Below are positions 25,948-59,044 of a DNA stretch of 64,000 nucleotides, one piece after another. The DNA lies in assembly GCF_900100975.1 (NCBI RefSeq), contig NZ_FNFX01000001.1, forward strand, positions 685,820 through 749,819, given 5' to 3'. Both the position numbers and the translations under genes were made by a program. How positions within the stretch are numbered: the stretch's first letter is position 1; each line of letters starts with the position of its first letter. The notes beneath the pieces were generated by a model that ran no database searches, was not told the origin of the DNA, and was given only the letters and a program-made list of their open reading frames with translations. This DNA is from Methylophilus rhizosphaerae (GTDB lineage: Bacteria > Pseudomonadota > Gammaproteobacteria > Burkholderiales > Methylophilaceae).

Positions 25948-27717
25948 TTAAAGTTTCATTTTTCTTTTATGTGTTGTGTTTTTTTCTGAACTACTTTTAA
26001 GCATTAAACCCATTTCTTTAACTTTATCTTCAAATTGTTTTTTACTATTAGTAAATTCTTCATTAGAATTCTCTTGATTATTAATTTTCTGATTTATTTT
26101 AGAATGTAGAGTATTTGAAAGATTCTCTGCCTTAATATAGTTATCCATATATTGTCTATTATCTAAATATTCGTTATCCTTGAGAAAAGGAAATGGTCTA
26201 TATTCACTCGTTTTAATTTCTGGTTGATTTATATATTCTTGTTTAGCATGGTTGAATAATTCATTATCATTTCTCAACTCATCATTAAGAGTAAAGAAAA
26301 TGTTTGGCTCATCTGTTATGACAAGTTTCAAGAAATCAATATTTGATTTTAAATCATCATGCACTGAGTCTAATTGACCATAACTTTTAAAAAATTCTAA
26401 ATTAATATCATAGTCAGTTTTTAAAGAATCTGAAAGATAATCAGCACCTGCATGTATTTGTGATTTAACTTTTTCTAAAATATACTCTTTATCGTTATTT
26501 AACTCTTCACCAATAAATTCAGTATTGGATGCATTATCATCCAAATATAAATCAACAACCTCTTTATCATTTCTCAACCTTTCGCTCACATATTCAAATG
26601 CTGATAAGTAAGCATGAGTATGTTCTTTCTCAGTAATAGCTAAATTTACAATATATCTATTCTCATTTTGCATTACCCAATCTTTATTATCGTAATTCCC
26701 ATTAGCTTTGTTAATATCAATTTCAGGATTAATTTCTCCATAATCTCTAAATAATTGCCAATGTGGAGCTACCGAAGCAAAAACATCTAATCTATTTTTA
26801 TCATAATCTAAACCATATTTATCTTCTTGATCTTGATAGTATTGCTCTGCTCTTCTCTCAATTGCCTCTTGTTCACGCTGCTCACTTTCATACTCTTTAA
26901 GATGGAATTCATTAATTTCCTCTTCAGTAGGATTAATTTTTCCATAAGTGTCTAAATTAAATTCATTGATATCTTTTATATATAATAATTCTTCATATTT
27001 TTTTATTTCTGCTTGCTCATCTTCAAATTTGTTATTACTGCACTCAATCGTATCATTGAAATACGGAACACCATTCATTAAAGGGGCATGTTCCAAAGAT
27101 ACTAATTGATTATCAGAACAAAAAAAATTACCACCTACTTCTTTCGGGGAATGCTCTAATGTACTTAATTGGTTATAACTACAATCAAAATCACCACCAA
27201 TTTTAATAGGACAACCTTTTAGTGATAGTAATTTGTTATAACCACAATCAAAGTTTCCAGTTACTTCAACTGGTGCATGCTCAATAGATTTCAAATGATT
27301 CTCTGAACAATCAAAATCTTCAAATACTAAGACTGGTGCATGTTTCAATGAATTGAGTTTATTGTATGAACAATCAAAGCTACCAACTACTCTAGTAGCA
27401 TATTCAAGAGAAGTTATTTCATTAAAACTACAATTTAGATATTTTTCAATATCATACGGACAACCCTTCAATGAGGTTAATTCATTAAAACTACAATCAA
27501 AATAACCATTCACTTTACCAAACTGCACTGGAATTATTTTTAATTGATTATCTGATATATCAACACTACCATCCACATCAACGGTTAAATCTTCATTAAT
27601 GGTGTAGTTCTTAACTCCATACTTATCTAACCACTTGCTGATATTTTTTGGTGTATTTAATTCTTTCTCATCTTTCACACCAAACCATGAATTTTGAAAC
27701 ATTGATTTTAAACCCAT
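25948..27717 (-). CDS. Comb-like leucine-rich-repeat plus DUF4116-like protein with basic tail
   Basis: 589 residues, no signal peptide. An N-terminal cap (KNYTINEDLTVDVDGSVDI) is followed by seven or eight 21-residue repeats of the form V-G-FDCSxNxLTSLxxxP (about 55-225). A second region (about 345-500) has repeats such as SERLRNDKEVV and LNDELRNDNELF that resemble DUF4116. It ends in THKRKMKL, a tail shared with unrelated proteins of this element. Promoter: TTGATA/TATAGT with 16-bp spacing at 27,746-27,773. It looks like a modular interaction protein; I infer a secreted effector. Confidence 0.75.
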   Translation of the reverse strand: MGLKSMFQNSWFGVKDEKELNTPKNISKWLDKYGVKNYTINEDLTVDVDGSVDISDNQLKIIPVQFGKVNGYFDCSFNELTSLKGCPYDIEKYLNCSFNEITSLEYATRVVGSFDCSYNKLNSLKHAPVLVFEDFDCSENHLKSIEHAPVEVTGNFDCGYNKLLSLKGCPIKIGGDFDCSYNQLSTLEHSPKEVGGNFFCSDNQLVSLEHAPLMNGVPYFNDTIECSNNKFEDEQAEIKKYEELLYIKDINEFNLDTYGKINPTEEEINEFHLKEYESEQREQEAIERRAEQYYQDQEDKYGLDYDKNRLDVFASVAPHWQLFRDYGEINPEIDINKANGNYDNKDWVMQNENRYIVNLAITEKEHTHAYLSAFEYVSERLRNDKEVVDLYLDDNASNTEFIGEELNNDKEYILEKVKSQIHAGADYLSDSLKTDYDINLEFFKSYGQLDSVHDDLKSNIDFLKLVITDEPNIFFTLNDELRNDNELFNHAKQEYINQPEIKTSEYRPFPFLKDNEYLDNRQYMDNYIKAENLSNTLHSKINQKINNQENSNEEFTNSKKQFEDKVKEMGLMLKSSSEKNTTHKRKMKL

Positions 27718-27785
27718 AACGAATTCTCCTTAAAGTTATGAATTAACTATAAGAAAATATTTGAAGATATCAAGTAAACGGCAAT

Positions 27786-27815
27786 TAAAAAGCCACTTGT
27801 ATGAAAAGTGGCTTT
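27786..27815 (-). terminator. Terminator of the second LRR gene
   Basis: AAAAGCCACTT and AAGTGGCTTT stem. Confidence 0.85.
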
Positions 27816-27833
27816 GATTCATTGAATATAAAA

Positions 27834-28424
27834 TTAGAGTTTCATTTTACGTTTTTGTTGAACACTCTCATTATGGCTTGGTATATTCGATTGTAATCTT
27901 TCATACATTTTCTCAGATTTCACATACTGAAGTAGTTCTAGTGGGTCTACTTCATAATATTTATTATCTTTAAAATTTTGAAGCATATGTTTCTCTATTG
28001 GATCATTGAGATCAACATTATTTAGAACAACTAAGAATTTATACCCATCACCAATACTTTCAGGAATATGGTCTAAACTCTTCAAATGATTATTCATGCA
28101 ATCAAAATGACCTCCAACTCTCTTTGGACAATGTTCTAATGATGTCAATTGATTATAAGAACAATTGAAATTCCCTCCCACTTCACTAGGGCAACCTTTC
28201 AAAGAAGTTAGATCATTACCTTTAATATAAAAATCACCGCTTACCTTTCCAAACTGAATTGGTATTTTTCCTATATGTTTGTAATTTATTGTTACATCAC
28301 CATCTACATCAACGGTTAAATCATCATTGATTGTGCAACCTTTAAACTCTATATAATTTTGCACCCAGTTATTTACTTCATCTCTCGTTTCCAATTTTTC
28401 CTTATGTAAAAAATCGTAGCTCAT
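27834..28424 (-). CDS. Comb-like leucine-rich-repeat protein with basic tail
   Basis: 196 residues. It has the same cap as its neighbour (TINDDLTVDVDGDVTI) and three to four 21-residue repeats (GGNFNCSYNQLTSLEHCP). The C terminus reads ERLQSNIP ... VQQKRKMKL, the shared tail. RBS AGGAG. Promoter TTGCTA/TATAGT at 28,450-28,477. It is a paralogue of the genes at 25,948, 35,499 and 58,208. Confidence 0.75.
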   Translation of the reverse strand: MSYDFLHKEKLETRDEVNNWVQNYIEFKGCTINDDLTVDVDGDVTINYKHIGKIPIQFGKVSGDFYIKGNDLTSLKGCPSEVGGNFNCSYNQLTSLEHCPKRVGGHFDCMNNHLKSLDHIPESIGDGYKFLVVLNNVDLNDPIEKHMLQNFKDNKYYEVDPLELLQYVKSEKMYERLQSNIPSHNESVQQKRKMKL

Positions 28425-28485
28425 ATTATTCTCCTATAGATATCAATTAACTATAAGATAATAATTTCTAATAGCAATACATTCA

Positions 28486-30049: not shown

Positions 30050-30081
30050 AATTGTTTCTCCTATAATTATTATGTAAATTA

Positions 30082-30109
30082 AATATAAGAAATAAGAATC
30101 AAATGTAAA
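30082..30109 (-). promoter_or_regulatory. Class A promoter of the YadA-like gene
   Basis: TTTACA-16-TATATT within GCTATTTACATTTGA. Confidence 0.75.
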
Positions 30110-30126
30110 TAGCAATTGATAAATAT

Positions 30127-31850: not shown

Positions 31851-31873
31851 ATACAAATCCTCGTTATAGATTT

Positions 31874-31962: not shown

Positions 31963-33141
31963 ATGGCATATAAGAAAAAGGAAACTGAACCAAGAGACTA
32001 CAGACAAGAATTAACTGATAAAACAATAATTAAAATTGAAGGGATGATTACTCAAATGGATGATAATCCTAATCTGAAATGGGTTAAATCTTGGTTTACA
32101 TGTGATGCTAGACCAAAGAACCCTTTCACTGGAACAATCTACAAAGGTATTAATCTTATTTCATTGATGGGTGAGGATTTTAATGACAATCGTTTTTATA
32201 CATATAACAACATTGCCGATATGGAAAAACAAAGGGCAAAGAATATATTTGATACAAATACTTTAAATGCTCAATTAGAATCAAAGAAAATCACTCATGC
32301 TGAATATGATGTAAGAATTGATGTTATTAATAAATCATTCAAAGAATTGGAAGATAAAGGATTAGAAGATAGAACAAAACCTTTATTCATCATGAAAGGC
32401 TCTAAATCAAATCCAGTGTTTAAAGCTATGCAAGTGCCTATTTCAAGAAAAGATGATAATGAACAATCTGAAGACCAAATTAATGAAGCTCCTGAAATGA
32501 TTTGGAAGCAAGTATTCTCTGGTAATGTTTTCAATGCCACTCAAATTAGTAATATCAAACCAATTCAAATTGAGAAGCTTAATTTCATTCCATTGGAAGA
32601 GGCTGAAATTCATTTGAAAGCTATGATTGAAAAAACCAACTTGGGATATAAAGAAGTTGATCAAACAAGAGCTTTTTATTCAGTTAAAGACCATGCTATA
32701 ACCATGCCATTGAGAGAAAACTTCAAGGATGAAAACTCTTTCTATGGTGTATTACTTCATGAGATTGGTCATTCAACGGGTAAACATTTTAATCGTGATA
32801 TGTCTGGTGGTTATGGTTCTAAGTCTTATGCAAAAGAAGAATTAGTGGCTGAAATTAGCAGTGTGATCATGAGTGCAGATTTAGGAATACCTTACGACTC
32901 AAGCCAACATGAAAATCATGTGGCATATCTTAAATCATGGGTAAGTGCTCTTAAGGATGATAAAAACTTCATATTCCAGGCAGCAAGTAAAGCTGAACAG
33001 TCTGTGAGTTATCAACATGAGATTAGACATACTTTCAAACAAGAATTGACTCTAAAGAATGAGCATAGGAACGATTTAAAACAAGACATGAAGGCTACCC
33101 CCTTACCTGAGAAGATTAAATCGCTCTCAATGAGTAGGTAA
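31963..33141 (+). CDS. ardC: ArdC-like antirestriction protein
   Basis: 392 residues. The N-terminal ArdC single-strand-DNA-binding domain (WVKSWFTCDARPKNPFTG ... YKGINLISLM) is followed by a zincin-like metallopeptidase domain with LLHEIGHSTG (HExxH; Zn-binding) and a downstream YAKEELVAEISS. ArdC proteins protect incoming DNA, and that of plasmid pSa was reported to move into recipients. Residues about 85-190 are longer than usual. The tail is KIKSLSMSR. It is one of few plus-strand backbone genes, divergent from the protease operon. Confidence 0.9.
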   Translation: MAYKKKETEPRDYRQELTDKTIIKIEGMITQMDDNPNLKWVKSWFTCDARPKNPFTGTIYKGINLISLMGEDFNDNRFYTYNNIADMEKQRAKNIFDTNTLNAQLESKKITHAEYDVRIDVINKSFKELEDKGLEDRTKPLFIMKGSKSNPVFKAMQVPISRKDDNEQSEDQINEAPEMIWKQVFSGNVFNATQISNIKPIQIEKLNFIPLEEAEIHLKAMIEKTNLGYKEVDQTRAFYSVKDHAITMPLRENFKDENSFYGVLLHEIGHSTGKHFNRDMSGGYGSKSYAKEELVAEISSVIMSADLGIPYDSSQHENHVAYLKSWVSALKDDKNFIFQAASKAEQSVSYQHEIRHTFKQELTLKNEHRNDLKQDMKATPLPEKIKSLSMSR

Positions 33142-33174: not shown

Positions 33175-33957
33175 TTACATTGTCATGGCATGTTCTTTAG
33201 TCTTCGTTTTGGTTTTAATTTGAGTAGGTTCTGCCTTAATTTCCTTGGTATAAGTTTTCTTGATATCTTTGGCAAGTCCTTTCTCAGTAAAAGCTATGTA
33301 TCTATCGATGCCTTTATTGATTTCACCATTTTGAAAATCTTTCACTGGATCAAGGTCTAGTCTCTTTTGAACTTGAGCGAATCTATCAGGTTGCTTATAG
33401 TCTTCAAGATTAAGAAATTTAGAAGTCTCAATCAAATGCACTAAGGCACTTTCAGGGGTGTTATTGAAGTGGTTCTTAACTGCTACATAGTATTTACCTA
33501 CGGCTAATATTTCACCTTTAACAAAACCCGGTTCTTTGGCTACTTTACCAGCACTAGTTTTAACCAATTCATTGTTAGCATCCCTTTTAGCCTTTAATGG
33601 AATTCCAGTAAAAGTTATCTTTTGTGGACTTGAATCAAACTCAATAGCTGTAGTGAATACTTCCCTTTCCTGCATAAGCTCTCTATTTACATTACGAGAA
33701 CGGCTTACATCAAACATAAATTGCTTTTGTGCTTTCTCGTCCATATCAAAAACTGATGGTGTGTAAAAAATGACATTGTTTGATTTATCCAATGCATCAG
33801 GATTTGGAACATATTCACCCTTTCCATATTTGCTATAAGCATGTGTTAAATCATACTTATTAGGCATTTCTACTGAATATCTATCGTTATCAATATCAAC
33901 CCTAACAATGATTCCATCTTGTTCACTTGCTTGAATTATTCCGTTTTTATTAGCCAT
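33175..33957 (-). CDS. Unknown protein with Lys/Thr-rich tail
   Basis: 260 residues from ATG 33,957 (AAGG eight bases upstream; an upstream in-frame ATG at 34,008 adds 17 hydrophobic residues that overlap the promoter). Beta-rich N terminus, unrecognised. The last 35 residues are basic and repetitive (TQIKTKTKTKEHAMTM). No signal peptide. It is convergent with ardC. Confidence 0.65.
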   Translation of the reverse strand: MANKNGIIQASEQDGIIVRVDIDNDRYSVEMPNKYDLTHAYSKYGKGEYVPNPDALDKSNNVIFYTPSVFDMDEKAQKQFMFDVSRSRNVNRELMQEREVFTTAIEFDSSPQKITFTGIPLKAKRDANNELVKTSAGKVAKEPGFVKGEILAVGKYYVAVKNHFNNTPESALVHLIETSKFLNLEDYKQPDRFAQVQKRLDLDPVKDFQNGEINKGIDRYIAFTEKGLAKDIKKTYTKEIKAEPTQIKTKTKTKEHAMTM

Positions 33958-34020
33958 GATAATTATCCTTATATATATTTGTGTAAGGTATACATAGCAA
34001 ATATTCAATTCAAGTCAACG

Positions 34021-34311
34021 TTATAGTTTAGATATTGATTTTATTTGTGTTGAATTATTTGGAAGTTGATTATGAAGTTTGGTGTGTAGTTCGGTTAATT
34101 GTATGAAGTGGATAAGTGAATCAATTGGATTATCTTTATTGATAAATTTTTGAAGTTCTTCACTTGCGAACTGGTAAGACTTAATATTTTGAAGTAAAGC
34201 AATAAGAACAAGATAAGGGTCGTTTTGAAATGAATCATCTGCATACTCTAAATCTAAACCATTTTTTGATAATGCTTTTATAACGAATTCCTTATCTTTG
34301 AATCTATGCAT
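34021..34311 (-). CDS. Small DUF4116-like protein
   Basis: 96 residues. It opens KDKEFVIKALSKNGLDLEYA, close to DUF4116 repeats seen in the 25,948 and 41,016 proteins. It ends LHNQLPNNSTQIKSISKL, a relaxed version of the shared L-x3-LP ... KL tail. It lies 23 bp below the 34,335 gene. Confidence 0.6.
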   Translation of the reverse strand: MHRFKDKEFVIKALSKNGLDLEYADDSFQNDPYLVLIALLQNIKSYQFASEELQKFINKDNPIDSLIHFIQLTELHTKLHNQLPNNSTQIKSISKL

Positions 34312-35498: not shown

Positions 35499-36011
35499 TT
35501 AAAGTTTCATTTTTCTTACTAGCTTTTGTTCTTGATTAACTTGTGGCAATTCTCTAGTTAATCTTTCACTTAATTTTATTGCATAATAGTATTGATGGAT
35601 TTGATTTACATCCATGTCATAAAGTTGTTCATTCTCTAATTGATTATTTAGACAATGGAAATCTCCATTAACTCTCAATGGTGAATGTTCTAATGAAGTC
35701 AATTGATTATAATCACACTCAAAATCTCCATTTATATATTTTGGTGAATGTTCTAATGAAGTTAGTTTATTATTATGACATGCAAAATATCCATCAACTT
35801 CATAAGGACAACCTTTCAATGAAGTTAATTGATTATTTGCACAATCAAAAAATCCCTCTACCTTACCAAACTGAACTGGTAATTCCTTTAACCAACATCT
35901 TTCCAAATCAACATTATTATTCACATCAACGGTTAAATCTTCATTGATTGTGAAATTCTTTATTTTCATTTCATCAAGCCAGTATTCAATTTCATTTTTA
36001 TACTTAAACAT
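35499..36011 (-). CDS. Comb-like leucine-rich-repeat protein with basic tail
   Basis: 170 residues. Cap (FTINEDLTVDVNNNVDL), then four 21-residue repeats (GYFACHNNKLTSLEHSP). It ends ERLTRELPQ ... KLVRKMKL, the shared tail. Its start overlaps the end of the 36,004 gene by 8 bases, so the two are co-translated. Confidence 0.75.
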   Translation of the reverse strand: MFKYKNEIEYWLDEMKIKNFTINEDLTVDVNNNVDLERCWLKELPVQFGKVEGFFDCANNQLTSLKGCPYEVDGYFACHNNKLTSLEHSPKYINGDFECDYNQLTSLEHSPLRVNGDFHCLNNQLENEQLYDMDVNQIHQYYYAIKLSERLTRELPQVNQEQKLVRKMKL

Positions 36012-36780: not shown

Positions 36781-39162
36781 TTAAGCTGCCTCCTTAATAT
36801 CAGGATATTGAGCTTTCACTTCTGCTACCAATACTTCCAATTCTTCAGTGCTGATGCCATGAATTTTAACGATATCAGAACGTGGAAATAATGCTCTTTT
36901 GAATCTAACTAAAGCTAGTCCAGGTCTTTCCAATGATTTCTTGTTAGCTTCAGTGTATAACGCTCTCACTGGATTGTTAGGATCAGTCATGTATTCTGAT
37001 AAACCTCTGTATTTATCAAGTTCATCACTGCTGTTCTTTCTGTCATAAATCAATTTGGTAGCATCAAGGTCCCCTGCAAATTTCATTGCATGTGCTTCAG
37101 GGTGGCTTGCATCAAACTCTGGACTTCTCATGAAGTTATTACTTGTAGTTGCAAAGTCAATCGGATTGCCTTGTGGTGCTGAACTAGTTACAACTTTGAT
37201 TTTACCAATCACTTCAGACATGAAATTATCAGTATCTTCATTGTCAGTCTCTAACATTACATAGTTTGAGAATGATAATAACAATGCATGTGCTTTCTCT
37301 TTTGAACCTAACTTATTAATCAAGTTAGTTAAATGTTGAGTAGCAAATATGTATGAAACACCTCTACTTCTACCTTTTTGTGATTGATCAACATCGTCGT
37401 CAGAAATAATATCTTGGCATTCATCAATAATAAGCATTACTTGGGTTTGAGTTTTGTCATTTCTCCAATCTGCCTTTCTTTGTGCAAGTGCATTACTTAA
37501 TCTAGCTTTCAAAAGTTGTGTAATGATTCGACCAGCATTACCGTATTTTTCTGGTGGTAAAGAAACACCATATTTAGCACCTTTAAGAATGTCTAATATA
37601 TCAATATCACTTGTTTCTGAATCAGCCCAATCATACAAAGATTCGTTTTGTGTTAATGGTGATAACCATGACATGAAGTTTGCAAAGAAGCTTTGAATTG
37701 TTTCTTGGTTTTCTTTGTTTTGATTCAAAGTAATATAATCAAGAATCTTAGTAATACCCTTATCACTAAATAAGTTTGGATGGAATTCCAAAATTGAAAC
37801 AATAGGATGTGAAAACTTACCATCAATGAATGTTCCTACTTCAGTCAACATTTTACCTAATTTGATTATGTAGTTAGTGCTTCCAGATATTGAAGATGTA
37901 GCCTTCATAAAATCTTCACTTTGATTATCAAGTGATTTCATTTCTAAAAGTTTTTGTCTTGTTAAAAGTGAGTAATAAAGTAATTCAGCACCACCCAATC
38001 TAAATATCTCATTTGCACCAGCATTTTGATTTGAACCACTTGCATTCAAAATAACTTCAACAATTTGTTCAGGTCTTAAATCACCAAATATCATTAAGTT
38101 CTTAACTAAATGTGGAGCAATGATTGCATCTAAAGTTGCTTCCAATTCATAAGCTAAATCACCTTTACCATCAAGAACTAAATAACCCATTTTCTTACCT
38201 GACATTCTTTCAATGGCATATAACTTGTATGCTAAATATCTTAAATATCTAGATTTACCACCACCAGATTTACCAAACACAAATAAATGCGTATATAAAT
38301 CTTGTAATGTGAAACCAATTGTATTGCCAGATTCAGGAGCATTGATATCGCCTTGATCTTGGAAATTACCTAATGCAGTTCCAGATTCAATATATGGTGT
38401 TGAATCTTTTAATGCATTTGAAATTTGATTAACCAATGGATTACTTAATTTTTCACTATTAACGAATTTCTCATTTAATGTTCCACCATGAGCACCAACT
38501 TGCTTTCTTAATTCAAGAGCTCTTTTCATATCTTCACGATAGCTAGATGCAAATATAATGAAAGCTGGAACTATGTATAAAAAGGTCGTGAAAATCCAAG
38601 AATCAATATTCAAATTGATTGCTATATAAGCCAATGCGATAGATAAAAATATACCCATTGGTTTTAAGAATGTTTTCATATTCACCATGAATAAGAATTT
38701 AGCTACAAGCATGACTGTTAGAAATGTGCCTACAATACTTCCGATTACACTAGCAATCATAAAAAAGTTGAATGAAGAGGCAATATTACCCAAGCCAGTA
38801 ATTCCTAAAACATTAAGTAAAATCATCAATGAAAATACGATGGCAATATAAAGCTGTGAGATTCCAGGATCACTACCACCATTCCAATCTTTAGGTAAAC
38901 ATAGACCTGCGATTTTCTTACCAGACTTTGATAATATGGTTCTATTTTTTGTATTCCTCAAATCTGCTGGAACGATTGAAGAGCTATAAATACCACCCCT
39001 TTGAGTGATTTCATTAGTCCACTCTAAAGCTTCCTTTTGCATACCTTTCACATTCAAAAAAACAACTAAACCTTTCCATTGTTTAATGATGTGAACAACC
39101 TTACTAAAAAAAGTATTCACTGGTTTTAGTTTATCTACTGCCTTATCTAATTTGTCTTTCAT
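36781..39162 (-). CDS. Membrane-anchored VirD4/TraG-class ATPase (first of two)
   Basis: 793 residues. Three or four membrane helices lie between about 100 and 206. The ATPase domain has Walker A GKSGGGKS at 297-304, YLVLDGKGD following, Walker B LIIDECQD, and a sensor-like YIFATQ. This is the coupling-protein/HerA-FtsK class, not VirB4-like by its anchor. It is cotranscribed with a coiled-coil membrane protein upstream and the Pro-rich lipoprotein downstream. A role in recruiting DNA or protein substrates to a secretion channel is likely. Confidence 0.82.
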   Translation of the reverse strand: MKDKLDKAVDKLKPVNTFFSKVVHIIKQWKGLVVFLNVKGMQKEALEWTNEITQRGGIYSSSIVPADLRNTKNRTILSKSGKKIAGLCLPKDWNGGSDPGISQLYIAIVFSLMILLNVLGITGLGNIASSFNFFMIASVIGSIVGTFLTVMLVAKFLFMVNMKTFLKPMGIFLSIALAYIAINLNIDSWIFTTFLYIVPAFIIFASSYREDMKRALELRKQVGAHGGTLNEKFVNSEKLSNPLVNQISNALKDSTPYIESGTALGNFQDQGDINAPESGNTIGFTLQDLYTHLFVFGKSGGGKSRYLRYLAYKLYAIERMSGKKMGYLVLDGKGDLAYELEATLDAIIAPHLVKNLMIFGDLRPEQIVEVILNASGSNQNAGANEIFRLGGAELLYYSLLTRQKLLEMKSLDNQSEDFMKATSSISGSTNYIIKLGKMLTEVGTFIDGKFSHPIVSILEFHPNLFSDKGITKILDYITLNQNKENQETIQSFFANFMSWLSPLTQNESLYDWADSETSDIDILDILKGAKYGVSLPPEKYGNAGRIITQLLKARLSNALAQRKADWRNDKTQTQVMLIIDECQDIISDDDVDQSQKGRSRGVSYIFATQHLTNLINKLGSKEKAHALLLSFSNYVMLETDNEDTDNFMSEVIGKIKVVTSSAPQGNPIDFATTSNNFMRSPEFDASHPEAHAMKFAGDLDATKLIYDRKNSSDELDKYRGLSEYMTDPNNPVRALYTEANKKSLERPGLALVRFKRALFPRSDIVKIHGISTEELEVLVAEVKAQYPDIKEAA

Positions 39163-41015: not shown

Positions 41016-41606
41016 ATGAGCAATGATAAGCATGTTGAAACAGTAAAATATCTAGTAAAAGAAAAAGGTGGTCATTACTTTAAAGGTCTGGATGAAACAT
41101 ATAGAAACAATCCTGAAATAGCTTTACATGCTATTAAACATAATCCTAATTTGAGTATTATGGAAAAAGCTAATGATGTGATTAGAGACAATAAAGCAAT
41201 CGCATTACTTGAACTTAAATCAAATGCTAGGTCTATTGGTTTTTTAAGTGAAAGATTACGAGGTGATAAAGAAGTAGCCCTATTAGCATGTAAATATTTT
41301 GGTTCAGGACTTTCACATGTAAGCAATGAATTAAAAAATGATGAAGATGTGGTAAGTGTAGCTGTTGAAAATGATCCTTTCTCAATTTTTAAAGCCAATC
41401 CAAGTATGTTGAATAATGAAAGGGTTTTGAATATTGCTTTGAAACAATACAAATTACATGAGAAATTTTTTGATTCAATTAATGAAACAAAACATGTTGA
41501 ATTCTTAAAGCAATATGAACAAAAATATGAATTAAACCAGAAGTTGAAAGGATTATTACCTATATCAAAATCTCATGATAAACCAGTAAGAAAATTGAAA
41601 CTTTAA
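41016..41606 (+). CDS. DUF4116-like repeat protein with basic tail
   Basis: 196 residues with three to four helical repeats of about 40 residues (FLSERLRGDKEVALLACKY; VSNELKNDEDVVSVAVEND), matching DUF4116, which also occurs in Legionella proteins. It ends KLKGLLPI ... PVRKLKL, the tail seen on the LRR proteins although the fold is unrelated. Own promoter (TTGCTT-17-TATAGT) and AGGAG RBS. Candidate translocated effector. Confidence 0.72.
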   Translation: MSNDKHVETVKYLVKEKGGHYFKGLDETYRNNPEIALHAIKHNPNLSIMEKANDVIRDNKAIALLELKSNARSIGFLSERLRGDKEVALLACKYFGSGLSHVSNELKNDEDVVSVAVENDPFSIFKANPSMLNNERVLNIALKQYKLHEKFFDSINETKHVEFLKQYEQKYELNQKLKGLLPISKSHDKPVRKLKL

Positions 41607-43169: not shown

Positions 43170-45395
43170 TTATTTGTTTATTCGTTCTTGATATCTTTGC
43201 AAAAATGAATTGGAATGAGGATTCAATTGTTTATCTTTAATTTTATCTAACATATCAATAACTAATGAAGCTGAATGTGTATCTGTTAATGATTCAATGA
43301 AAACTTCTTTACTTGCTTCATCAATGACATTCTCTTCATTAAATTTTCTTTCTTCTTCAGACATTTCTTCCATATGTTGACCAGTGTCCACCCATACTTC
43401 ATTAGTTAAATCTTCTTCAAAAGTTTCAGGCTGTTTCTCCATTACTTTATCGTCCACTTTATCTAATTTAATTTGTGTTGATGTTTGCCCATCATTGATA
43501 TGGGAAGTAATCACTTTTTTAAATCTTGAATTTTTATTAATAGATGATCCTAATTGTGGTTGCTCCATCCAATGTGGAACAACTTCTTCAATATTTTCAA
43601 ATGGCTTTTCAAGGATATAGACATCTTTAATACCTCTGAATATTCCTAAATATCTGATATGTGTATCGGATATTTCAAGCTTTGCAGATAATTCACTTGG
43701 GAATATTGTCTTGCGAGAATGTTCCTGATAATTTAGACCGATACTAGTAGAACCATTACTCTTATTAAGTGAAGTATGTAATTTATCAATGAGTTCATCA
43801 CCCATGAGCTCACATAACTTAGATGCTGTGTCGCCTATAGGAACACCCGTCACTATTAGATTTGATGAAGTTTCGCGCCAGCTATCAATATCATCTTGTG
43901 TGTATATTTTCTTTGCTTGAATCAAGTTTTGAGTGGCTATTACTCCTGCCCATCCTTTAGAACGGCCACGGTCAAAAAGCTTATCGATGATAGGTTGCCC
44001 TGTTTCATTCACAAGCTTTCCAGGAGCATGAAATTCATCAAGAAAGAATGCCCCTCTTGGTGTGATACTGTTTGGAATAGAAGGACTATCAAGTAAAGAA
44101 ATCATGTAAGTAAGCATGGCTCTAATCAAACCACTACTCATCGCACCCTCTGAATCATTAGGCTTAAGATAAATTGTTTTGATTGGGTAATCAGGGTCAG
44201 TCATGAATTTATATAGACTAATTTTCTTCCTTGGATTTTCTGGTGTTTCATACCAAAACCTAGCCAAGCTAATCACTGGATCAAGGAAGGCTTTGAAATT
44301 AATCATGATGCCCTCTGCTGTTTTTCCTTTCTCAATTGCACCTGTTTCTTTGTTTAATGAACCTACAAAATCCAATGCTTCAGGATAGTAATTCTCCATG
44401 ATGTAGAGCAATTCTTCATCGTTGCATAAACAAACATCCTTCATATCAGACCAGTCGTAATTTGATTTACCATTGTCATCTTTGAATGTCTGCATAAGAT
44501 AAACGAATAAACCAACTCCAACGGCTCTGGCTGAGTTTGACCACATAGGGTCTTTGCCTTCAGCAATTAATGCAGCAAAGAATTTCTTGATTAAACCTAG
44601 TTGTTTGTTATCTTCCGGAAAATCCCATACATAACTTCTTGAATCTGTCGGGTCTAGAATGGCATCTGTTCCATCACCTTTATAGTAAGCAGAAGTGAAT
44701 TCATACTTGGGATCAAGAACCACTACTTTTAAACCCATGTCCTGAGCTGCACGAATTTGGGTAGATAAAAATTGACTTTTTCCAGTGCCAGAAGCCCCAA
44801 TCAAAATTGTATGAGTGAAAAACCTCTTGATTGACATATAAACGGTATTAGATATTTTGGAGAACTTCCCATGCTTGATAGTCTGTTTCTCCATAATAGG
44901 AAAAAGCTTTTCTTCAGCCTCATCTAATTCCCATAATTGCAAACCTGATTTATGAACTTCAACTTGAGATTTAATAGGGTTATTAATAACATTAAATACC
45001 CCTTTGACTATCCCAATAGCACCCACAAAATAACCAAATAAAACCCTTGAATATAGTGTGTAATCCATTTTGTAATATTGAAGAGTATTGAGATATTCAA
45101 AATATCTTGCTACCTCTTGCTTGTAAAAAAATGGTATGAAGTCATGGACTCTAATCTTAAACCAGTAAGTTAAATGAGTTAAATATTGCCTATCAACAAA
45201 CTCTGTGGCCGGCGGTGTAGGAAAGAAGCTCGGATTGATATACCAAGTGATAGCTGTGGCTATAAAAAATCCTGAAAAGGCAAATAACGTGGATTGATAC
45301 AACATATCTGAAAGATAAATTACTTGAGTATTACCATCATCAATTCTTGAAGTATCCCTTATAAATCTAACGACTGTCTTGATATTATTAGCCAT
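43170..45395 (-). CDS. traD: Type IV coupling protein TraD/VirD4-like (second ATPase)
   Basis: 741 residues. Two membrane helices (about 33-52 and 115-135). Walker A GASGTGKS at 200-207 followed by LKVVVLDPKYEF; Walker B GAFFLDEFHAPGKL; then GVIATQNLIQ. The C-terminal 130 residues are acidic, as in coupling proteins that dock the relaxosome. It overlaps the small gene 45,388-45,621 by 8 bases. It should carry the MobF relaxase-DNA complex to the channel. Confidence 0.9.
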   Translation of the reverse strand: MANNIKTVVRFIRDTSRIDDGNTQVIYLSDMLYQSTLFAFSGFFIATAITWYINPSFFPTPPATEFVDRQYLTHLTYWFKIRVHDFIPFFYKQEVARYFEYLNTLQYYKMDYTLYSRVLFGYFVGAIGIVKGVFNVINNPIKSQVEVHKSGLQLWELDEAEEKLFPIMEKQTIKHGKFSKISNTVYMSIKRFFTHTILIGASGTGKSQFLSTQIRAAQDMGLKVVVLDPKYEFTSAYYKGDGTDAILDPTDSRSYVWDFPEDNKQLGLIKKFFAALIAEGKDPMWSNSARAVGVGLFVYLMQTFKDDNGKSNYDWSDMKDVCLCNDEELLYIMENYYPEALDFVGSLNKETGAIEKGKTAEGIMINFKAFLDPVISLARFWYETPENPRKKISLYKFMTDPDYPIKTIYLKPNDSEGAMSSGLIRAMLTYMISLLDSPSIPNSITPRGAFFLDEFHAPGKLVNETGQPIIDKLFDRGRSKGWAGVIATQNLIQAKKIYTQDDIDSWRETSSNLIVTGVPIGDTASKLCELMGDELIDKLHTSLNKSNGSTSIGLNYQEHSRKTIFPSELSAKLEISDTHIRYLGIFRGIKDVYILEKPFENIEEVVPHWMEQPQLGSSINKNSRFKKVITSHINDGQTSTQIKLDKVDDKVMEKQPETFEEDLTNEVWVDTGQHMEEMSEEERKFNEENVIDEASKEVFIESLTDTHSASLVIDMLDKIKDKQLNPHSNSFLQRYQERINK

Positions 45396-46404: not shown

Positions 46405-49400
46405 TTAACGATCAACTATTATTTGTTTCATTTTTTGTTTAGATTTCACTTTCTCAATTGTTGGCTTGTCCTCTATTGGAATTATTGAAGGTTTATCAGC
46501 AATCACAACATCAGGCTTAACTTTCTTATTATCAATTAAAGCTTTCAGCTTAGATAATTTAGGCTTGTCTGACATATCCTTTAAGCCATCTTGTTTAATC
46601 GTTTCTATAGCCCTTTGTGTTTGTTCTATAGCAAGAGTATCTTGATTAACTGGAATAATTTTATCTAAGGACCTTACTTTCATTCTGGCATCGATTTCTT
46701 TACCAAGCTCAATCAATGAAACTCTCTTAGATTCTCTCTTAAATGATTCAACGACTTGCAAGTGTTCAATCTGTGTTGAATAGAATTTAGTGCTATATCT
46801 AGCTCTTGTCATACCTACATTGAAAAGCTCTTGATTGTTATTAGGTGCATTCTCACCATAGATATATGCATTATTAACGGTCATACCTTGGGATTTTTCA
46901 AAAGACATTGCATAGCCCAATCTCATTTGTTCTGGATTATCAATAGTCTTTATTTTTCCTGAATCAAACTCAATGGTAATTTTGTTATTTTCTATACTAG
47001 TAATAGTGCCTAAATCTCCATTGTTATATTCATCCTTAATATTTTTCTCCATGATGATTCTATCGCCAATAAAGAACTTACCTTTTTGGTTTTCAAATTG
47101 CTCACCAAATATTTCACCAGCTTCTAATCTTCTTTCTTGAATTGTATTATTGATACGATCAATTGATTTGTTAGTTGAAGTAATAAGTAGCTTGTCCTTA
47201 AAAGAATTGATATCTTCAAGAAAATCTTTACTTATTGCCTGTATGGTTTCAGTTGTAGTTGTATGTGAATTTTTAATAGCCCCTATTTGTTCTAATAGGT
47301 CAAATACCTTGATAACATGAACACCTGATTCTTTTGTTGCTTTCATTAAATCAGCATCTTTATAAACTTCCTTTAATGCTGAAGTTTCAGCAATCTCTAA
47401 AGCTTTGTCATTCTTCTGTCTGCGAATTTCCACAAGATAATTGACCTGATCCTTTAATTCGCTATCCTTCAAAAATTCATTTAAGGAATTGCCGGTTGCC
47501 ACTGAGTTAATCTGATTTGGATCACCCACTAAGATGATTTTAGCTCCTGCTTCATTCACGGTCTTTAAGAGCTTATGCATGTTCCTAGTGCCTACCATGC
47601 TTGATTCATCAACAAAGATAATGTTATTGGAAGTAAGTTTTAAATCACCATTAGCAACTTCAATGTTGAATTTATCTATGGTTGCTGTGAAATTACAATC
47701 AGTTTCATTAGCTAATGCAGTAGATACCTTGCCAGTTGGAGCAAGTCCTATGGTTCTATAGCCTGCCTTGTTAGCAATTTTTGTTGTCCAGCCAGCGGCC
47801 AAACTTTTGCCAGATCCGGGTAAACCAATAACAATTTGACCTTGCTTGTCATTGAAAGCTGATTCAATGAATTCTTTCTGTTCTTTGTTAGGAGTAATAC
47901 CTGTCTGTTTCTCAATGGTAGCTATTTCATTGGCTACATCATTCACTCGTTTAGGTTGCAAACTTGAAAATTGATTTTTCATGATATCCACATTTTCACG
48001 CTCCATCTTGATCAACTCATGAGTGGTATATTGAAGTTGTGTTTTAGATAGTGAATTTGTATCTACAATCACTTCACGTTTTTGAAGTCCTCTAATTAAT
48101 TTTTTAGCAATTACTTGAGCTTCAGCACCATAACCTTGGGTTTTAGATAATTCAGCTATGAGTCCATTTTCAGTAAAAAATGGTGATGTATTAGTTAGGG
48201 TTTCCAATATCTTTTCATATTTTTTTGATTTGAATGAAAGCCCAATCTCTTCAGTCTTTTTCATTTTAAGATTCATTGAGCTCACATCTTTAGCGAGTTC
48301 AATATCTTTAAGAAATTTAGCCATACCCTTTTTAGGTTGCTTGATAGCTCTCCAAACTTCTTGTCTATTTTTATTACTATCTAAATAGGTAAGTTTATTT
48401 TGATAGCTAGTATTCAATCTTTCTAGCCTTGCATTGATTTCTTCTTCAATATCCTTTGAGATAATTTGTTTAGTAGATTTTTCAACATGCCATACTGCTT
48501 TCTCTACTATCTTTTCTTCAAATTTTCCTTTGATAATTTTTCCAGAATCATCTTTAACTGGAACATTAACTTTAACCTTCTCTTTATTTTTACCATTGAG
48601 TTCAATTAAATCACCAGTCTGAACATTGGATTCTTTAATAGCTCTTTCTAAATCAACACCCCAAAATGTTTTCTCTTTACCATTGCGATCACTAACAACC
48701 ACAAAATATGAATTCTGATTTTCTTTGATATGTTGATATTTGGCTGGACCATGAGAAACAAGGTAGCCATGTGGTAATGTAAATTGGTTATCATTAACTA
48801 ATTGTTTATATGCAGTTGCTTCTTGTTCAATCTCTGCAACTTTAATACTGTGTTGATTAAATAAGTCTTTTTTAGCTTCACTGATTTTTTGATCAATCAA
48901 TTCTTTTGATTTTGAATTCGCCCTTATTTTTTGTAAGCTGTCTTCATCATATGCAACTCTCCAATCATGAATTTCAGCATTTGATTCATGAGTGATTGTT
49001 TGATGGTCTTTGTCATAAGCCTCAAGTTGATAATCAGTAAACCTAGCATTCCATTTTTCCACAAGCATGCTCTTATACATTTTATCTATTGAGTCATGAA
49101 AATCTTTGTCTTTGATTTCATCCATTTCAATGGCTCTAACTGAACCATCAGAAAGTTTAAGCATATTCGGTATTAAAAAATGCACATGACTACTAGGATT
49201 TCCGGAACGTCCATCATTATGATAATAAAGGTAGTAGCCAGATTCACCAGTTCTACCTTTATAGTCCTTGATGTATTGTTTAAGAATTTTGTCATGCACT
49301 TCAATAGCTGTATCAATAAGCATTTGTTCGGCAGCAAGTCTATCTTCCAATTTCATAGTTGGGATTGCATATGAAATGCTACTGTCTTGAGTGAATACAA

Positions 49401-49869
49401 ATTCAATATCTGTTTTTTTCACAAAGCCAGTTGAAGTTTTAACATCTTCAGGCTTAAATACTATCTTCTGTTTATCAGGAGTTTTATAGAACCCTCTTTT
49501 AAGGTCTTTCTGTGTTAATTTAATTGCATGACCTTCATCATTCATAACAATATGTTGAATGGTTTTTTTAAGTTTGATATGTGCTTCAGTTCTTTTGTCT
49601 TTACCTAATTGGAGATCAGCTATCATGTCTATCTTCTCTTCAGTTAAATGACCTGATAATTTCCATTCATCAAATAAAGCACCTCCTGAACGAGTATATA
49701 AAGCTAAAGGGTCTGCCAATGCAGTTTGCATAGTTGCCTCCAAAGCAATATCTTTTAAGTTATATGCTTGTCTCCAATCAATGTTTTCTACAACCTCACT
49801 TAATTGTTTCTTCAAATATTTATTGTAAGAGAAACCTGATTTAACTGTTACATTAGATATACCAATCAT
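46405..49869 (-). CDS. traI: MobF-family conjugative relaxase-helicase
   Basis: 1,154 residues. It nicks oriT and unwinds the transferred strand. N-terminal relaxase domain: tyrosines near 15-19 (SYNKYL) and the metal-binding triad His217, His228, His230 in YYHND ... NPSSHVHF. A WGVDLERAI module lies near 403. The C-terminal SF1 helicase (about 655-1,060) has Walker A GLPGSGKS at 682-689, VDESSMVG, GDPNQ and VGMTRARYS. The tail is rich in Lys and ends KSKQKMKQIIVDR. It overlaps the small upstream gene by 4 bases. Confidence 0.93.
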   Translation of the reverse strand: MIGISNVTVKSGFSYNKYLKKQLSEVVENIDWRQAYNLKDIALEATMQTALADPLALYTRSGGALFDEWKLSGHLTEEKIDMIADLQLGKDKRTEAHIKLKKTIQHIVMNDEGHAIKLTQKDLKRGFYKTPDKQKIVFKPEDVKTSTGFVKKTDIEFVFTQDSSISYAIPTMKLEDRLAAEQMLIDTAIEVHDKILKQYIKDYKGRTGESGYYLYYHNDGRSGNPSSHVHFLIPNMLKLSDGSVRAIEMDEIKDKDFHDSIDKMYKSMLVEKWNARFTDYQLEAYDKDHQTITHESNAEIHDWRVAYDEDSLQKIRANSKSKELIDQKISEAKKDLFNQHSIKVAEIEQEATAYKQLVNDNQFTLPHGYLVSHGPAKYQHIKENQNSYFVVVSDRNGKEKTFWGVDLERAIKESNVQTGDLIELNGKNKEKVKVNVPVKDDSGKIIKGKFEEKIVEKAVWHVEKSTKQIISKDIEEEINARLERLNTSYQNKLTYLDSNKNRQEVWRAIKQPKKGMAKFLKDIELAKDVSSMNLKMKKTEEIGLSFKSKKYEKILETLTNTSPFFTENGLIAELSKTQGYGAEAQVIAKKLIRGLQKREVIVDTNSLSKTQLQYTTHELIKMERENVDIMKNQFSSLQPKRVNDVANEIATIEKQTGITPNKEQKEFIESAFNDKQGQIVIGLPGSGKSLAAGWTTKIANKAGYRTIGLAPTGKVSTALANETDCNFTATIDKFNIEVANGDLKLTSNNIIFVDESSMVGTRNMHKLLKTVNEAGAKIILVGDPNQINSVATGNSLNEFLKDSELKDQVNYLVEIRRQKNDKALEIAETSALKEVYKDADLMKATKESGVHVIKVFDLLEQIGAIKNSHTTTTETIQAISKDFLEDINSFKDKLLITSTNKSIDRINNTIQERRLEAGEIFGEQFENQKGKFFIGDRIIMEKNIKDEYNNGDLGTITSIENNKITIEFDSGKIKTIDNPEQMRLGYAMSFEKSQGMTVNNAYIYGENAPNNNQELFNVGMTRARYSTKFYSTQIEHLQVVESFKRESKRVSLIELGKEIDARMKVRSLDKIIPVNQDTLAIEQTQRAIETIKQDGLKDMSDKPKLSKLKALIDNKKVKPDVVIADKPSIIPIEDKPTIEKVKSKQKMKQIIVDR

Positions 49870-56787: not shown

Positions 56788-56804
56788 TAGCAAATATTGA
56801 TTAT

Positions 56805-57356: not shown

Positions 57357-57358
57357 GA

Positions 57359-57691: not shown

Positions 57692-57714
57692 AATTATTTC
57701 TCCATTTGTATACC

Positions 57715-57742
57715 CTTATACGAAATAAAAACCAAATGTAAA
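57715..57742 (-). promoter_or_regulatory. Class A promoter
   Basis: TTTACA-16-TATAAG within GCTATTTACATTTG. Confidence 0.7.
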
Positions 57743-57771
57743 TAGCAAAAGTTAAATAATTTGAATTTAAT

Positions 57772-58014
57772 TTATTTCTTATCAATTGATTGTGTTGTTG
57801 TTTGAGTTCTCATATCAAATGAATTTATTTTATTGAATAGCATGCTGAAAGTAATGAGAGTGATAATTACAATCCCTGCTTTGATTGTGATTTGTGTATT
57901 TTTATTACCGATTACTTTAATGGCTTTCTCTTTGAAATTTTCTTTCTTAATTATTTTAGGTAGTTTTACATTAAGCTCTCCATCATTAAATTCAAATGTA
58001 AATTGTTTTTTCAT
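57772..58014 (-). CDS. Small membrane protein
   Basis: 80 residues from ATG 58,014 (GGAG six bases upstream; earlier in-frame ATGs at 58,020 and 58,026 sit on the RBS). A basic, beta-like N-terminal half, then one membrane helix (IKAGIVIITLITFSMLF) and a short polar end. Unrecognised. Confidence 0.6.
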   Translation of the reverse strand: MKKQFTFEFNDGELNVKLPKIIKKENFKEKAIKVIGNKNTQITIKAGIVIITLITFSMLFNKINSFDMRTQTTTQSIDKK

Positions 58015-58072
58015 GTCCATCTCCATATAGTTTTCATAACAATATGAAATTAAGATTGAAAGTAAAGGTATA

Positions 58073-58144
58073 GATAAAAAAAATCCCCAATTTCTTGGGG
58101 ATTTATAATACTAACTAGGTATTTTAGGAAATTGTATGTAATAC
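58073..58144 (-). ncRNA. Candidate small RNA of about 70 nt
   Basis: A good minus-strand promoter (TTGACA at 58,178-58,173, 16 bp, TATATT at 58,156-58,151) is followed after about 45 bases by a strong terminator (AAATCCCCAA/TTGGGGATTT, 58,081-58,104, with T8). No ORF lies between. The transcript could also form AATAC/GTATT. The terminator may at the same time end the LRR gene above. Confidence 0.45.
58075..58104 (-). terminator. Terminator of the small RNA / fourth LRR gene
   Basis: Ten-base stem with a 4-base loop and T8 on the minus strand. Confidence 0.85.
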
Positions 58145-58207
58145 ATAACTAATATAAGATAACGAATTCCATTGTCAACAGTTTATTGATATTTATTTTA
58201 TAAATAT

Positions 58208-59044
58208 TTAAAGCTCTAATGAGTTAGATTTTCTTATGACTTTTGGTTTCTCATTAGTTATTGGTTTTGTTTTGTCATTCACTTGTTTAAGTTTTTTCTC
58301 TTGTTTGTTGTAGTAGTCCAATATCTCTTTGTGGTTGAACTTATCAAATACTTCAGGTAGTTCATTCCTATCACACCAGACAACCCCTTTAACGAGCTCT
58401 GGACCATTTTTAAAGGTGGTTATTGAGTTATTGCTACAATTGAGATTCATATGAATTTCTCTAGGTGCATGCTCTAAAGAGGTCAACTTATTATTATTAC
58501 AATTAAAGTCGCCTTTAATGATTGGTGGACAACCCTTAAGCGATGTTATCTGATTATGAGAGCAATCATAGTTTTCAAATACACTTGATGGACCTTCTTC
58601 TAAAGAAGTGATTTTGTTATAAAAACAATAGAATCTACCGCCTACTTCTTTAGGGCAACCTTTCAATGAAGTTAAGTTGTTATATGCACAATTGAAATTC
58701 CAGCCCGTTTTTTCTGGTGCATACTCTAATGATTCCAATTGATTTTTAGAACAAATATAATTTTCACGGACAATATGGGGACCATACTTTAATGATGTTA
58801 TGTTGTTAATAGTGCAGTTGAAAGTTCCATAAACTTCTTTAGGGCTACCTTTGAGTGAAGTTAATTGATTGTTAGCGATATTAAAATCACCATGAACTAC
58901 ACCAAACTGAAAAGGTAGCTCTGTTAATTGTTTGCTGTTTAAATCTATGTCTTGATTCACATCTACTGATAAATCACTATTGATAGAATATTTTTTAATA
59001 TTGTGTATATCTAGCCAGTGTTTAATTTCTTGTTCTGTTTTCAT
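58208..59044 (-). CDS. Comb-like leucine-rich-repeat protein, longest array
   Basis: 278 residues. Cap (YSINSDLSVDVNQDIDL) and about nine 21-residue repeats (GGRFYCFYNKITSLEEGP; KGDFNCNNNKLTSLEHAP). The C terminus, KPKVIRKSNSLEL, is a diverged form of the R-K-M-K-L tail. Promoter TTGCAT-16-TATATT at 59,075-59,102. It is about 23 kb from the nearest paralogue (35,499). Confidence 0.75.
   Translation of the reverse strand: MKTEQEIKHWLDIHNIKKYSINSDLSVDVNQDIDLNSKQLTELPFQFGVVHGDFNIANNQLTSLKGSPKEVYGTFNCTINNITSLKYGPHIVRENYICSKNQLESLEYAPEKTGWNFNCAYNNLTSLKGCPKEVGGRFYCFYNKITSLEEGPSSVFENYDCSHNQITSLKGCPPIIKGDFNCNNNKLTSLEHAPREIHMNLNCSNNSITTFKNGPELVKGVVWCDRNELPEVFDKFNHKEILDYYNKQEKKLKQVNDKTKPITNEKPKVIRKSNSLEL

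What the first reader, a model, noticed from the sequence alone, without database searches (positions are those of the whole stretch)
25948..59044. Shared basic C-terminal tail on unrelated proteins: candidate type IV secretion signal
Proteins with different folds end alike: THKRKMKL (25,948), VQQKRKMKL (27,834), KLVRKMKL (35,499), PVRKLKL (41,016). The 58,208 (VIRKSNSLEL), 41,652 (GIRMKMKVS) and 34,021 (IKSISKL) proteins carry looser versions. Four of them also have an L-x3-[LI]-P segment 8-12 residues earlier (LQSNIP, LTRELP, LKGLLP, LHNQLP). A tail shared across LRR and DUF4116-like proteins argues for a sorting function. Known VirB/D4 substrates carry C-terminal basic signals. I infer a set of effectors co-transferred with the DNA, a system I do not recognise from the literature.
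Basis: partly seen in the sequence, partly recalled or inferred. Interest (0 to 1): 0.85.

Follow-up and report, generated by a model that had tools for sequence, protein, structure and literature searches.

The report
Shared protein tail, likely secretion tag
Proteins of quite different shapes, carried by several mobile DNA elements of bacteria, end in the same short positively charged tail, which probably marks them for export into another cell and differs slightly from one element to the next.

Summary
The tail is real. The window lies in a 69.5-kb integrative element in a tRNA-Met gene. Four window proteins end in RK[ML]KL; a fifth lies 2.6 kb past the window edge. The matching DNA pattern occurs 5 times in the own genome, always inside this element; none of 298 other genomes holds more than 2. 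Related tails, mostly behind an L-x3-[LI] segment, occur in a Herbaspirillum element (including an ArdC-LRR fusion), a Comamonadaceae element, and a 180-kb contig, G299, where 104 of 219 ORFs carry one, across five repeat families and other proteins. The same folds elsewhere lack it: 0 of 74 LRR and 0 of 225 DUF285 ORFs. Tail wording follows the element rather than the fold. The three bacterial elements encode a relaxase and coupling protein; parts related to type IVB secretion (a weak DotL match, DotA/TraY, IcmW) occur in three of the four replicons. I read it as a translocation signal for an element-specific coupling complex. A sorting role is strongly supported; transport is inferred. The machine that reads it, and the nature of G299, remain open.

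The parts
8048..8125 (+). tRNA-Met with the left end of the element (att repeat 8077-8125, copy at extended position 77631-77679, i.e. L022:13631-13679)
25948..27717 (-). 589-aa LRR + DUF4116 protein, tail HKRKMKL
27834..28424 (-). 196-aa LRR protein, LQSNIP segment and tail QKRKMKL
31963..33141 (+). ArdC (ArdcN + MPTase-PolyVal); ends SLSMSR (no tail); its homologue is fused to a tailed LRR in Herbaspirillum
33175..34008 (-). unknown 277-aa protein, ends HAMTM (no tail); weak similarity to a Herbaspirillum protein ending TRLKI (two-sequence BLAST E 7e-5); similarity to the Comamonadaceae protein is not established
34021..34311 (-). 96-aa DUF4116 protein, LHNQLP segment, end IKSISKL not supported by the matrix
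35499..36011 (-). 170-aa LRR protein, LTRELP segment and tail LVRKMKL
36781..39162 (-). TraG-D_C coupling-type ATPase; only PDB match IcmO/DotL (E 1.1e-5); candidate reader of the tail
41016..41606 (+). 196-aa DUF4116 helical-repeat protein, LKGLLP segment and tail PVRKLKL; tail disordered in the model (pLDDT <50, residues 182-196)
41652..43112 (-). 486-aa protein beside the coupling protein; ends GIRMKMKVS (not supported by the matrix)
43170..45395 (-). TrwB/TraD-like coupling protein; homologues in the Comamonadaceae and Herbaspirillum elements
46405..49869 (-). MOBF-type relaxase-helicase; ends KSKQKMKQIIVDR (basic, but not the tail)
58208..59044 (-). 278-aa LRR protein with a divergent end VIRKSNSLEL (not supported by the matrix)

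Best explanation
The tail is a C-terminal translocation signal: a segment with L-x3-[LI], probably helical, followed by a basic-hydrophobic end ([KR]-[KR]-x-[KR]-[LIV]). It is carried by solenoid-type cargo proteins (LRR, DUF4116, ankyrin, MORN_2, DUF285) and read by an element-encoded coupling complex related to type IVB secretion, so that the cargo is delivered into another cell. In the window element the likely readers are the DotL-like ATPase (36781) or the TrwB/TraD-like coupling protein (43170). Each element keeps its own wording of the tail, as expected if cargo and receptor co-evolve. Shown: the tail, its spread over folds, its absence from homologues elsewhere, the element-wise dialects, and co-residence with relaxase, coupling proteins, DotA/TraY or IcmW. 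Inferred: recognition by a coupling protein, transport, co-transfer with DNA, and what the cargo does in the target cell.
For: Genome-wide exclusivity of RK[ML]KL to the element. G299-trained matrix, threshold 7: window element 5 of 66 (0.025 expected), Herbaspirillum 2 of 40 (0.021), Comamonadaceae 1 of 38 (0.016), chromosomal sample 0 of 275. G299: 104 of 219 ORFs >=80 aa with a strict tail, covering LRR 4/4, DUF285 48/62, ankyrin-like 19/22, MORN 5/6, DUF4116 4/6 and 24 of 119 others. L-x3-[LI] in residues -26 to -8 of 106 of 112 tailed proteins against a mean of 19.7 in internal windows. Tails follow element, not fold: 3.9 of 5 last residues identical between different folds of one element, 2.4 between LRR proteins of different elements. 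Herbaspirillum fusion of ArdC to a tailed LRR; polyvalent ArdC-type proteins are proposed to enter the recipient with DNA (PMC5512222, passages). Machinery: relaxase and coupling proteins, DotA/TraY above cut-off in two elements, DotL as only PDB match of 36781, IcmW in G299 at 56.7 bits, cut-off 27. Models: confident repeat domain and a low-confidence C-terminal end.
Against: I recognised no full T4SS in the elements: the own genome has no P-loop_TraG (VirB4-type) match, and in the Comamonadaceae and Herbaspirillum genomes the matches (3 each) lie on contigs other than the element's; G299 has neither that nor TraG-D_C. IcmW was found only in G299, not in the genomes carrying the three elements. 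G299 may be a huge-phage fragment: its PheS is 49% identical to one of a 634-kb uncultured phage, a virion-structural PHROG family matches (2.8e-22), and it has NAD and tRNA-synthetase genes; a phage would not need a T4SS signal. R388 ArdC export is not required for its activity (PMC7213743, passages). The Comamonadaceae wording KPKFK[LI] scores only 0.7-2.4 in the matrix. Tailed G299 genes are mostly paralogue expansions, so counts are not independent. The relaxases end in other basic sequences, not in the tail itself.
Confidence: 0.6

Rival explanations
1. The tail packages proteins into phage particles (or another phage-made compartment), and the bacterial elements borrowed tailed genes from a huge phage.
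For: G299 is classed as viral in IMG/VR; PheS 49% identical to a 634-kb phage; phage-type families in part of its genes, among them a virion structural protein family (phrog_1383, 2.8e-22) and a weak head protein match (phrog_19403, 2.5e-4).
Against: Phages with related LRR proteins have no tail: 0 of 301 ORFs in five stretches of four records, pattern at or below its control in all four records. G299 carries IcmW, a secretion adaptor. No terminase or portal among the families displayed for 71 G299 proteins (25 of 37 families displayed). The element-specific dialects in conjugative-type elements are unexplained.
Confidence: 0.12
2. Degron or unfoldase tag: C-termini resembling the MuA-type ClpX signal (RRKKAI) mark the proteins for ClpX.
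For: Basic residues followed by a hydrophobic C-terminal residue; RRKKAI, ClpX and MuA occur together in three papers (search listing), the comparison itself is recalled. A Lon-like AAA ATPase lies beside IcmW in G299 and has a homologue in the Herbaspirillum element.
Against: A host ClpX would not be expected to impose different wordings per element; about half the ORFs of a contig carrying a degron is hard to explain; the L-x3-[LI] segment is unexplained.
Confidence: 0.08
3. Nuclear localisation signal used after delivery into a eukaryotic host.
For: K-[KR]-x-[KR] resembles a monopartite NLS (recalled); ankyrin, LRR and MORN repeats are common in effectors that act in eukaryotes (recalled); IcmW in G299.
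Against: KPKFK[LI] in five Comamonadaceae proteins does not fit; an NLS need not sit at the very C-terminus with a final hydrophobic residue. Whether the carriers live with eukaryotes was not examined.
Confidence: 0.07
4. The tails are shared by descent: 3' gene ends were copied with the genes or exchanged by recombination, without function.
For: The LRR genes are paralogues, and three of them have similar terminators after the stop.
Against: DUF4116, ArdC-LRR and other folds share the tail; the window DUF4116 gene has a different terminator; silent codon differences; five repeat families and other proteins in G299; neutral ends would not stay so uniform.
Confidence: 0.05
5. Non-specific nucleic-acid or membrane binding tail.
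For: Basic and hydrophobic composition.
Against: The strict position of the hydrophobic last residue and of the basic residues at -5, -4 and -2 (partly by construction of the strict pattern), the dialects per element and the L-x3-[LI] segment exceed what binding by charge needs.
Confidence: 0.08

Closest known systems
C-terminal translocation signals of VirB/VirD4 and conjugative T4SS substrates (VirE2/VirF type, recalled; F-plasmid conjutome)
   Same: C-terminal, basic, sometimes hydrophobic; C-terminal or internal signals found for F (PMC11288057, abstract and passages)
   Different: Here a fixed five-residue end with a conserved segment before it, near identical across unrelated folds in one element; known signals vary considerably even within one system (same passages)
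Dot/Icm (type IVB) effectors and the DotL-IcmSW coupling complex
   Same: Repeat-domain cargo (recalled); weak DotL match, DotA/TraY and IcmW in three of the four replicons
   Different: Dot/Icm effector signals are described as glutamate-rich blocks and short hydrophobic patches (recalled), not K-K-x-K-[LI]; no full Dot/Icm locus was found
Polyvalent proteins of phages and conjugative elements (Iyer et al. 2017, PMC5512222)
   Same: Multidomain proteins with ArdC-N/MPTase proposed to enter with DNA (passages); the Herbaspirillum ArdC-LRR fits
   Different: 'leucine-rich', 'DUF4116' and 'C-terminal tail' have 0 occurrences in that paper's main text
MuA-type ClpX recognition tail (recalled)
   Same: Basic end with final hydrophobic residue
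   Different: No preceding L-x3-[LI] segment or element-specific dialects known to me; function here untested

Membership tests
T4SS substrate with C-terminal signal | C-terminal, net basic/hydrophobic segment | tested here: met
T4SS substrate with C-terminal signal | encoded together with relaxase and coupling protein | tested here: met
   window, Herbaspirillum and Comamonadaceae elements; for G299 no TraG-D_C was found
T4SS substrate with C-terminal signal | transfer depends on the signal and on the coupling protein | not testable with these tools
   needs a reporter assay
T4SS substrate with C-terminal signal | secretion apparatus present | tested here: inconclusive
   no P-loop_TraG match in the own genome or G299; 3 matches each in the other two genomes, on contigs other than the element's. 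The model may miss DotO-type relatives; a helper system would be needed
Dot/Icm effector set | DotL-type coupling ATPase | tested here: inconclusive
   36781: only PDB match IcmO/DotL, E 1.1e-5, no single stretch passing
Dot/Icm effector set | IcmS/IcmW adaptor | tested here: inconclusive
   IcmW in G299 above the Pfam cut-off, below the NCBIfam cut-off (41.6 of 100); not found in the three bacterial genomes
Dot/Icm effector set | DotA/TraY | tested here: met
   TIGR04346 375.7 and 350.3 bits, cut-off 100, window and Herbaspirillum elements; the narrower DotA model NF033886 stays below its cut-off of 500
Polyvalent proteins | ArdC-N or MPTase joined to other domains | tested here: met
   only for the Herbaspirillum ArdC-LRR fusion, by similarity to the window's ArdC and LRR proteins
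Monopartite NLS | K-[KR]-x-[KR] (recalled) | tested here: not met
   fails for KPKFK[LI] in five Comamonadaceae proteins
ClpX C-terminal tag | ClpX-dependent turnover | not testable with these tools
   needs an assay

The most novel reading that the evidence does not exclude
Mobile elements carry private 'address codes': each uses its own dialect of one bipartite C-terminal signal to tag a whole arsenal of solenoid proteins of unrelated folds for delivery by a type IVB-related coupling complex that the element itself encodes, and in the most extreme case (G299) about half of the ORFs of a 180-kb contig are such tagged cargo.
Probability: 0.4. Interest if true: 0.88.

Novelty: new variant of a known kind. 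Interest (0 to 1): 0.76.

Why it matters
Translocation signals of conjugation machines are hard to define. A five-residue end plus a preceding L-x3-[LI] segment that can be recognised by eye, with element-specific wording and natural controls (same folds without the tail), would give a tractable code for how coupling proteins choose cargo. It would also expose large delivered protein sets in mobile elements, hidden among LRR, DUF4116, DUF285 or MORN repeat proteins of unknown function.

Tried and rejected
Relatives by the coupling protein: 36781 found only remote matches in plasmids and in 199 genomes and nothing in IMG/VR; an alignment of three TrwB-like proteins gave nothing in IMG/VR. The LRR family is rare: only the own genome of 399 genomes of the order at E <= 1e-8, and 2 loci in the genome collection scan. 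The 33175 family: own genome only, of 399; its Comamonadaceae member is not supported by pairwise comparison. LRR or DUF4116 in plasmids: none or remote matches only; two DUF4116 regions were fetched and their tails not examined. The DUF4116 protein alone gave nothing in IMG/VR. The loose pattern ARRARRNNNARRMTNTAR separates only G299 clearly from its control (37 against 5; own genome 13 against 8). A DUF4116 fold search gave no significant match. Literature: no paper in the held library holds DUF4116 with type IV secretion, ArdC with conjugation and leucine-rich repeat, four of the five huge-phage/repeat terms, polyvalent proteins with translocation signal, conjugative and phage or the phage-nucleus import terms. 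An early reading of G299 as plain huge phage was weakened by IcmW. Two Herbaspirillum pattern hits on contig C20 lie on a contig with masked stretches and no tailed ORF of 70 aa or more and were dropped. Rows left out of the dialect count: the Herbaspirillum protein ending TRLKI, the Comamonadaceae protein ending KPTMKI, and the window's unsupported members.
Full report
SETTING. The window is part of contig C10 of a 2.76-Mb bacterial genome whose name is not given; from genome sizes of its relatives I guess a Methylophilaceae host, untested. Left of about 8 kb the DNA has 51-54% GC, right of it about 28-40%. A 49-bp repeat at 8077-8125, inside tRNA-Met, recurs at extended position 77631-77679, just past an integrase-like gene (76042-77505, read from its sequence), so the element is 69.5 kb and ends 13.7 kb beyond the window. 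It carries an AbiJ-like protein and a type III restriction-modification system, ArdC, a MOBF-type relaxase-helicase and a TrwB/TraD-like coupling protein, a second coupling-type ATPase (36781) whose only PDB match is IcmO/DotL with E 1.1e-5 and no single stretch passing, and DotA/TraY (TIGR04346, 375.7 bits, cut-off 100). No VirB4-type P-loop_TraG match exists in the genome, although the model rings in 7 of 14 control genomes (over the cut-off in 4); the Comamonadaceae and Herbaspirillum genomes have 3 matches each, on contigs other than those of their elements. The own genome has a further TraG-D_C protein on contig C3. The element therefore looks mobilisable rather than self-transmissible; this is inference.

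THE TAIL IN THE WINDOW. The strict set is 25948, 27834, 35499 and 41016, plus the LRR protein at L022:2586-3497. The DNA pattern for [RS]-K-[ML]-K-L-stop has 5 hits in the whole genome, all in the element, and none for the reversed control. In 298 other genomes the same pattern has 61 hits in 53 genomes, never more than 2. Codons differ silently between copies, and the DUF4116 gene has a different terminator from the LRR genes. The looser members 34021, 58208 and 41652 score -4.7, -7.4 and -10.7 in the matrix described below, the relaxase -13.7.

RELATED ELEMENTS. A scan of the species-genome collection with an LRR alignment returned two loci. In Herbaspirillum sp. ST 5-3 (element about 38-80 kb of scaffold 14, judged by GC) a 588-aa protein joins ArdC (residues 1-320) to an LRR domain and ends ...LKESLDKNLAVKDQQQQQQAKRIKI; a 124-aa protein ends ...LKNKLDSELAVKQAAITKRIKL; a 293-aa protein weakly similar to window 33175 (two-sequence BLAST E 7e-5) ends TRLKI. 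This element also has DotA/TraY, a MOBF relaxase and a TraD-like coupling protein. In Comamonadaceae bacterium ALPHA2B (about 121.6-156.7 kb) four clustered LRR proteins end RAKPKFKL, an unrelated 261-aa protein ends PPKPKFKI, and a 799-aa DUF4116-LRR protein ends SPKRKHKI; homologues of the window's relaxase, coupling protein, ArdC and integrase are present.

CONTIG G299. IMGVR_UViG_3300047323_000673 (180,807 bases, 28-30% GC in the four pieces measured) came up through its LRR proteins. In the pieces held, 104 of 219 distinct ORFs of 80 aa or more end in [KR][KR]x[KR][LIVMF]: DUF285-type 48 of 62, ankyrin-like 19 of 22, LRR 4 of 4, MORN_2 5 of 6, DUF4116 4 of 6, others 24 of 119; the families were assigned by crude sequence patterns. 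Internal 5-mers predict 0.06 (for 112 ORFs). Most carriers are paralogues, so these are not independent events. Residues -26 to -8 contain L-x3-[LI] in 106 of 112 tailed proteins (G299 and the elements together) against a mean of 19.7 (maximum 33) in internal windows of the same proteins, and in 21 of 76 G299 proteins without even a looser basic end.

CONTROLS. The same folds elsewhere lack the tail. In 38 other IMG/VR contigs with related LRR proteins 0 of 553 ORFs have it, including 0 of 74 LRR ORFs; in 42 other contigs with DUF285 proteins 2 of 942 ORFs have it (two short ORFs of other kinds), 0 of 225 DUF285 ORFs; among the AT-rich ones 0 of 213 and 2 of 778. A looser basic-hydrophobic end is found in 2 of the 74 and 5 of the 225. 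Five stretches of four phage records, three of them uncultured huge phages, have 0 of 301. The ORFs of two further contigs with MORN proteins show no strict tail. A matrix trained on G299 alone scores >=7 in 5 of 66 window-element ORFs, 2 of 40 Herbaspirillum-element ORFs and 1 of 38 Comamonadaceae-element ORFs, with 0.025, 0.021 and 0.016 expected, and in 0 of 275 ORFs of a chromosomal sample. Against: the five KPKFK[LI] proteins score only 0.7-2.4.

DIALECTS. Comparing the last five residues of 13 chosen tailed proteins from the three bacterial elements, different folds of one element agree at 3.9 positions on average (10 pairs), LRR proteins of one element at 4.25 (16), LRR-containing proteins of different elements at 2.4 (29), different folds of different elements at 2.1 (23). 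G299 LRR tails agree with other G299 tails at 3.3 and with the window's LRR tails at 2.75. Within one element LRR and DUF4116 share RK[ML]KL, ArdC-LRR and a 124-aa protein share KRIK[IL], LRR and an unrelated protein share KPKFK[LI]. The wording thus follows the element. I take this as a sign of an element-encoded receptor; local gene conversion of short 3' ends is a weaker alternative.

WHAT G299 IS. Evidence points both ways. Its PheS is 49% identical to one of a 634-kb uncultured phage; phage families match part of its genes, among them a virion structural family (phrog_1383, 2.8e-22) and a weak head protein match (2.5e-4); it carries NAD synthase, NAPRTase, arginyl- and phenylalanyl-tRNA synthetases, photolyase, LemA, TPM and GGDEF proteins. 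But a 150-aa protein at 1770-2222 is IcmW (Pfam 56.7 bits, cut-off 27; NCBIfam 41.6 bits, below its cut-off of 100), the adaptor that brings effectors to the Dot/Icm coupling complex (role recalled). IcmW was not found in the three bacterial genomes or in three huge phages. Beside it lies an AAA ATPase homologous (phmmer 5e-52) to a Lon-like ATPase of the Herbaspirillum element that has a hydrophobic N-terminal stretch. No TraG-D_C or P-loop_TraG was found, and among the PHROG families displayed for 71 of its proteins I saw no terminase or portal (displays 25 of 37 families). I leave open whether it is a phage, a plasmid or a bacterial chromosome piece.

STRUCTURE. AlphaFold models of 27834 (pLDDT 77.6) and 41016 (84.6) show a well-predicted repeat domain. 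In 41016 a last helix 158-180 is followed by a disordered stretch 182-196 (pLDDT <50); in 27834 everything after residue 130 has mean pLDDT below 60, its end drawn as a low-confidence helix. This fits a solenoid with a flexible tail but does not prove it. The DUF4116 model has no significant PDB match.

MECHANISM. Most likely the segment and tail dock on a coupling complex and the repeat protein is passed to a target cell, as C-terminal signals are for some substrates of the F system (PMC11288057, abstract and passages). The ArdC fusion fits the proposal that ArdC-containing polyvalent proteins enter with DNA (PMC5512222, passages), though for R388 ArdC export is not required for its activity (PMC7213743, passages). 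The cargo's task is unknown; counter-defence in the recipient is a guess. Transport, receptor and co-transfer with DNA are all inferred.

VERDICT. A sorting function is strongly supported; a type IV, probably type IVB-related, reading is the best explanation at about 0.6.

Noticed in passing
window 31963-33141 and 33175-34008; Comamonadaceae contig (G567:C33) 151920-154179: ArdC and neighbouring proteins end in methionine-rich sequences (SMSR, AMTM, GMTM, GMRM); they do not score as the tail but may be another kind of end.
   Followed up: partly
L280 (IMGVR_UViG_3300048502_000185) 6007-12588: Many MORN_2 paralogues share a different ending, FERLMRLKAFW or close to it, and a neighbouring zinc-finger-like family (by eye) shares hydrophobic ends such as LPLWLLLI.
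   Followed up: no
window 8435-13931: AbiJ-like gene next to a type III restriction-modification system; the latter is shared with the Herbaspirillum element.
   Followed up: partly
window 36781-39162 and 43170-45395: Two different coupling-type ATPases in one element, one TrwB/TraD-like and one with DotL as its only PDB match, without a P-loop_TraG match in the genome.
   Followed up: partly
window 28901-31856: A protein with a borderline YadA anchor (just below cut-off), a glycoside hydrolase family 3 protein and a transglutaminase-like protein in tandem, possibly surface or cell-wall functions.
   Followed up: no
L244:13754-15616 and L091:279-1742: Lon-like AAA ATPase of the Herbaspirillum element and its G299 homologue beside IcmW; a candidate chaperone or unfoldase for cargo.
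   Followed up: partly
L247 (G568:C20, 10.6 kb of the Herbaspirillum assembly): By eye this contig reads like mitochondrial genes, with masked stretches; probably contamination.
   Followed up: no
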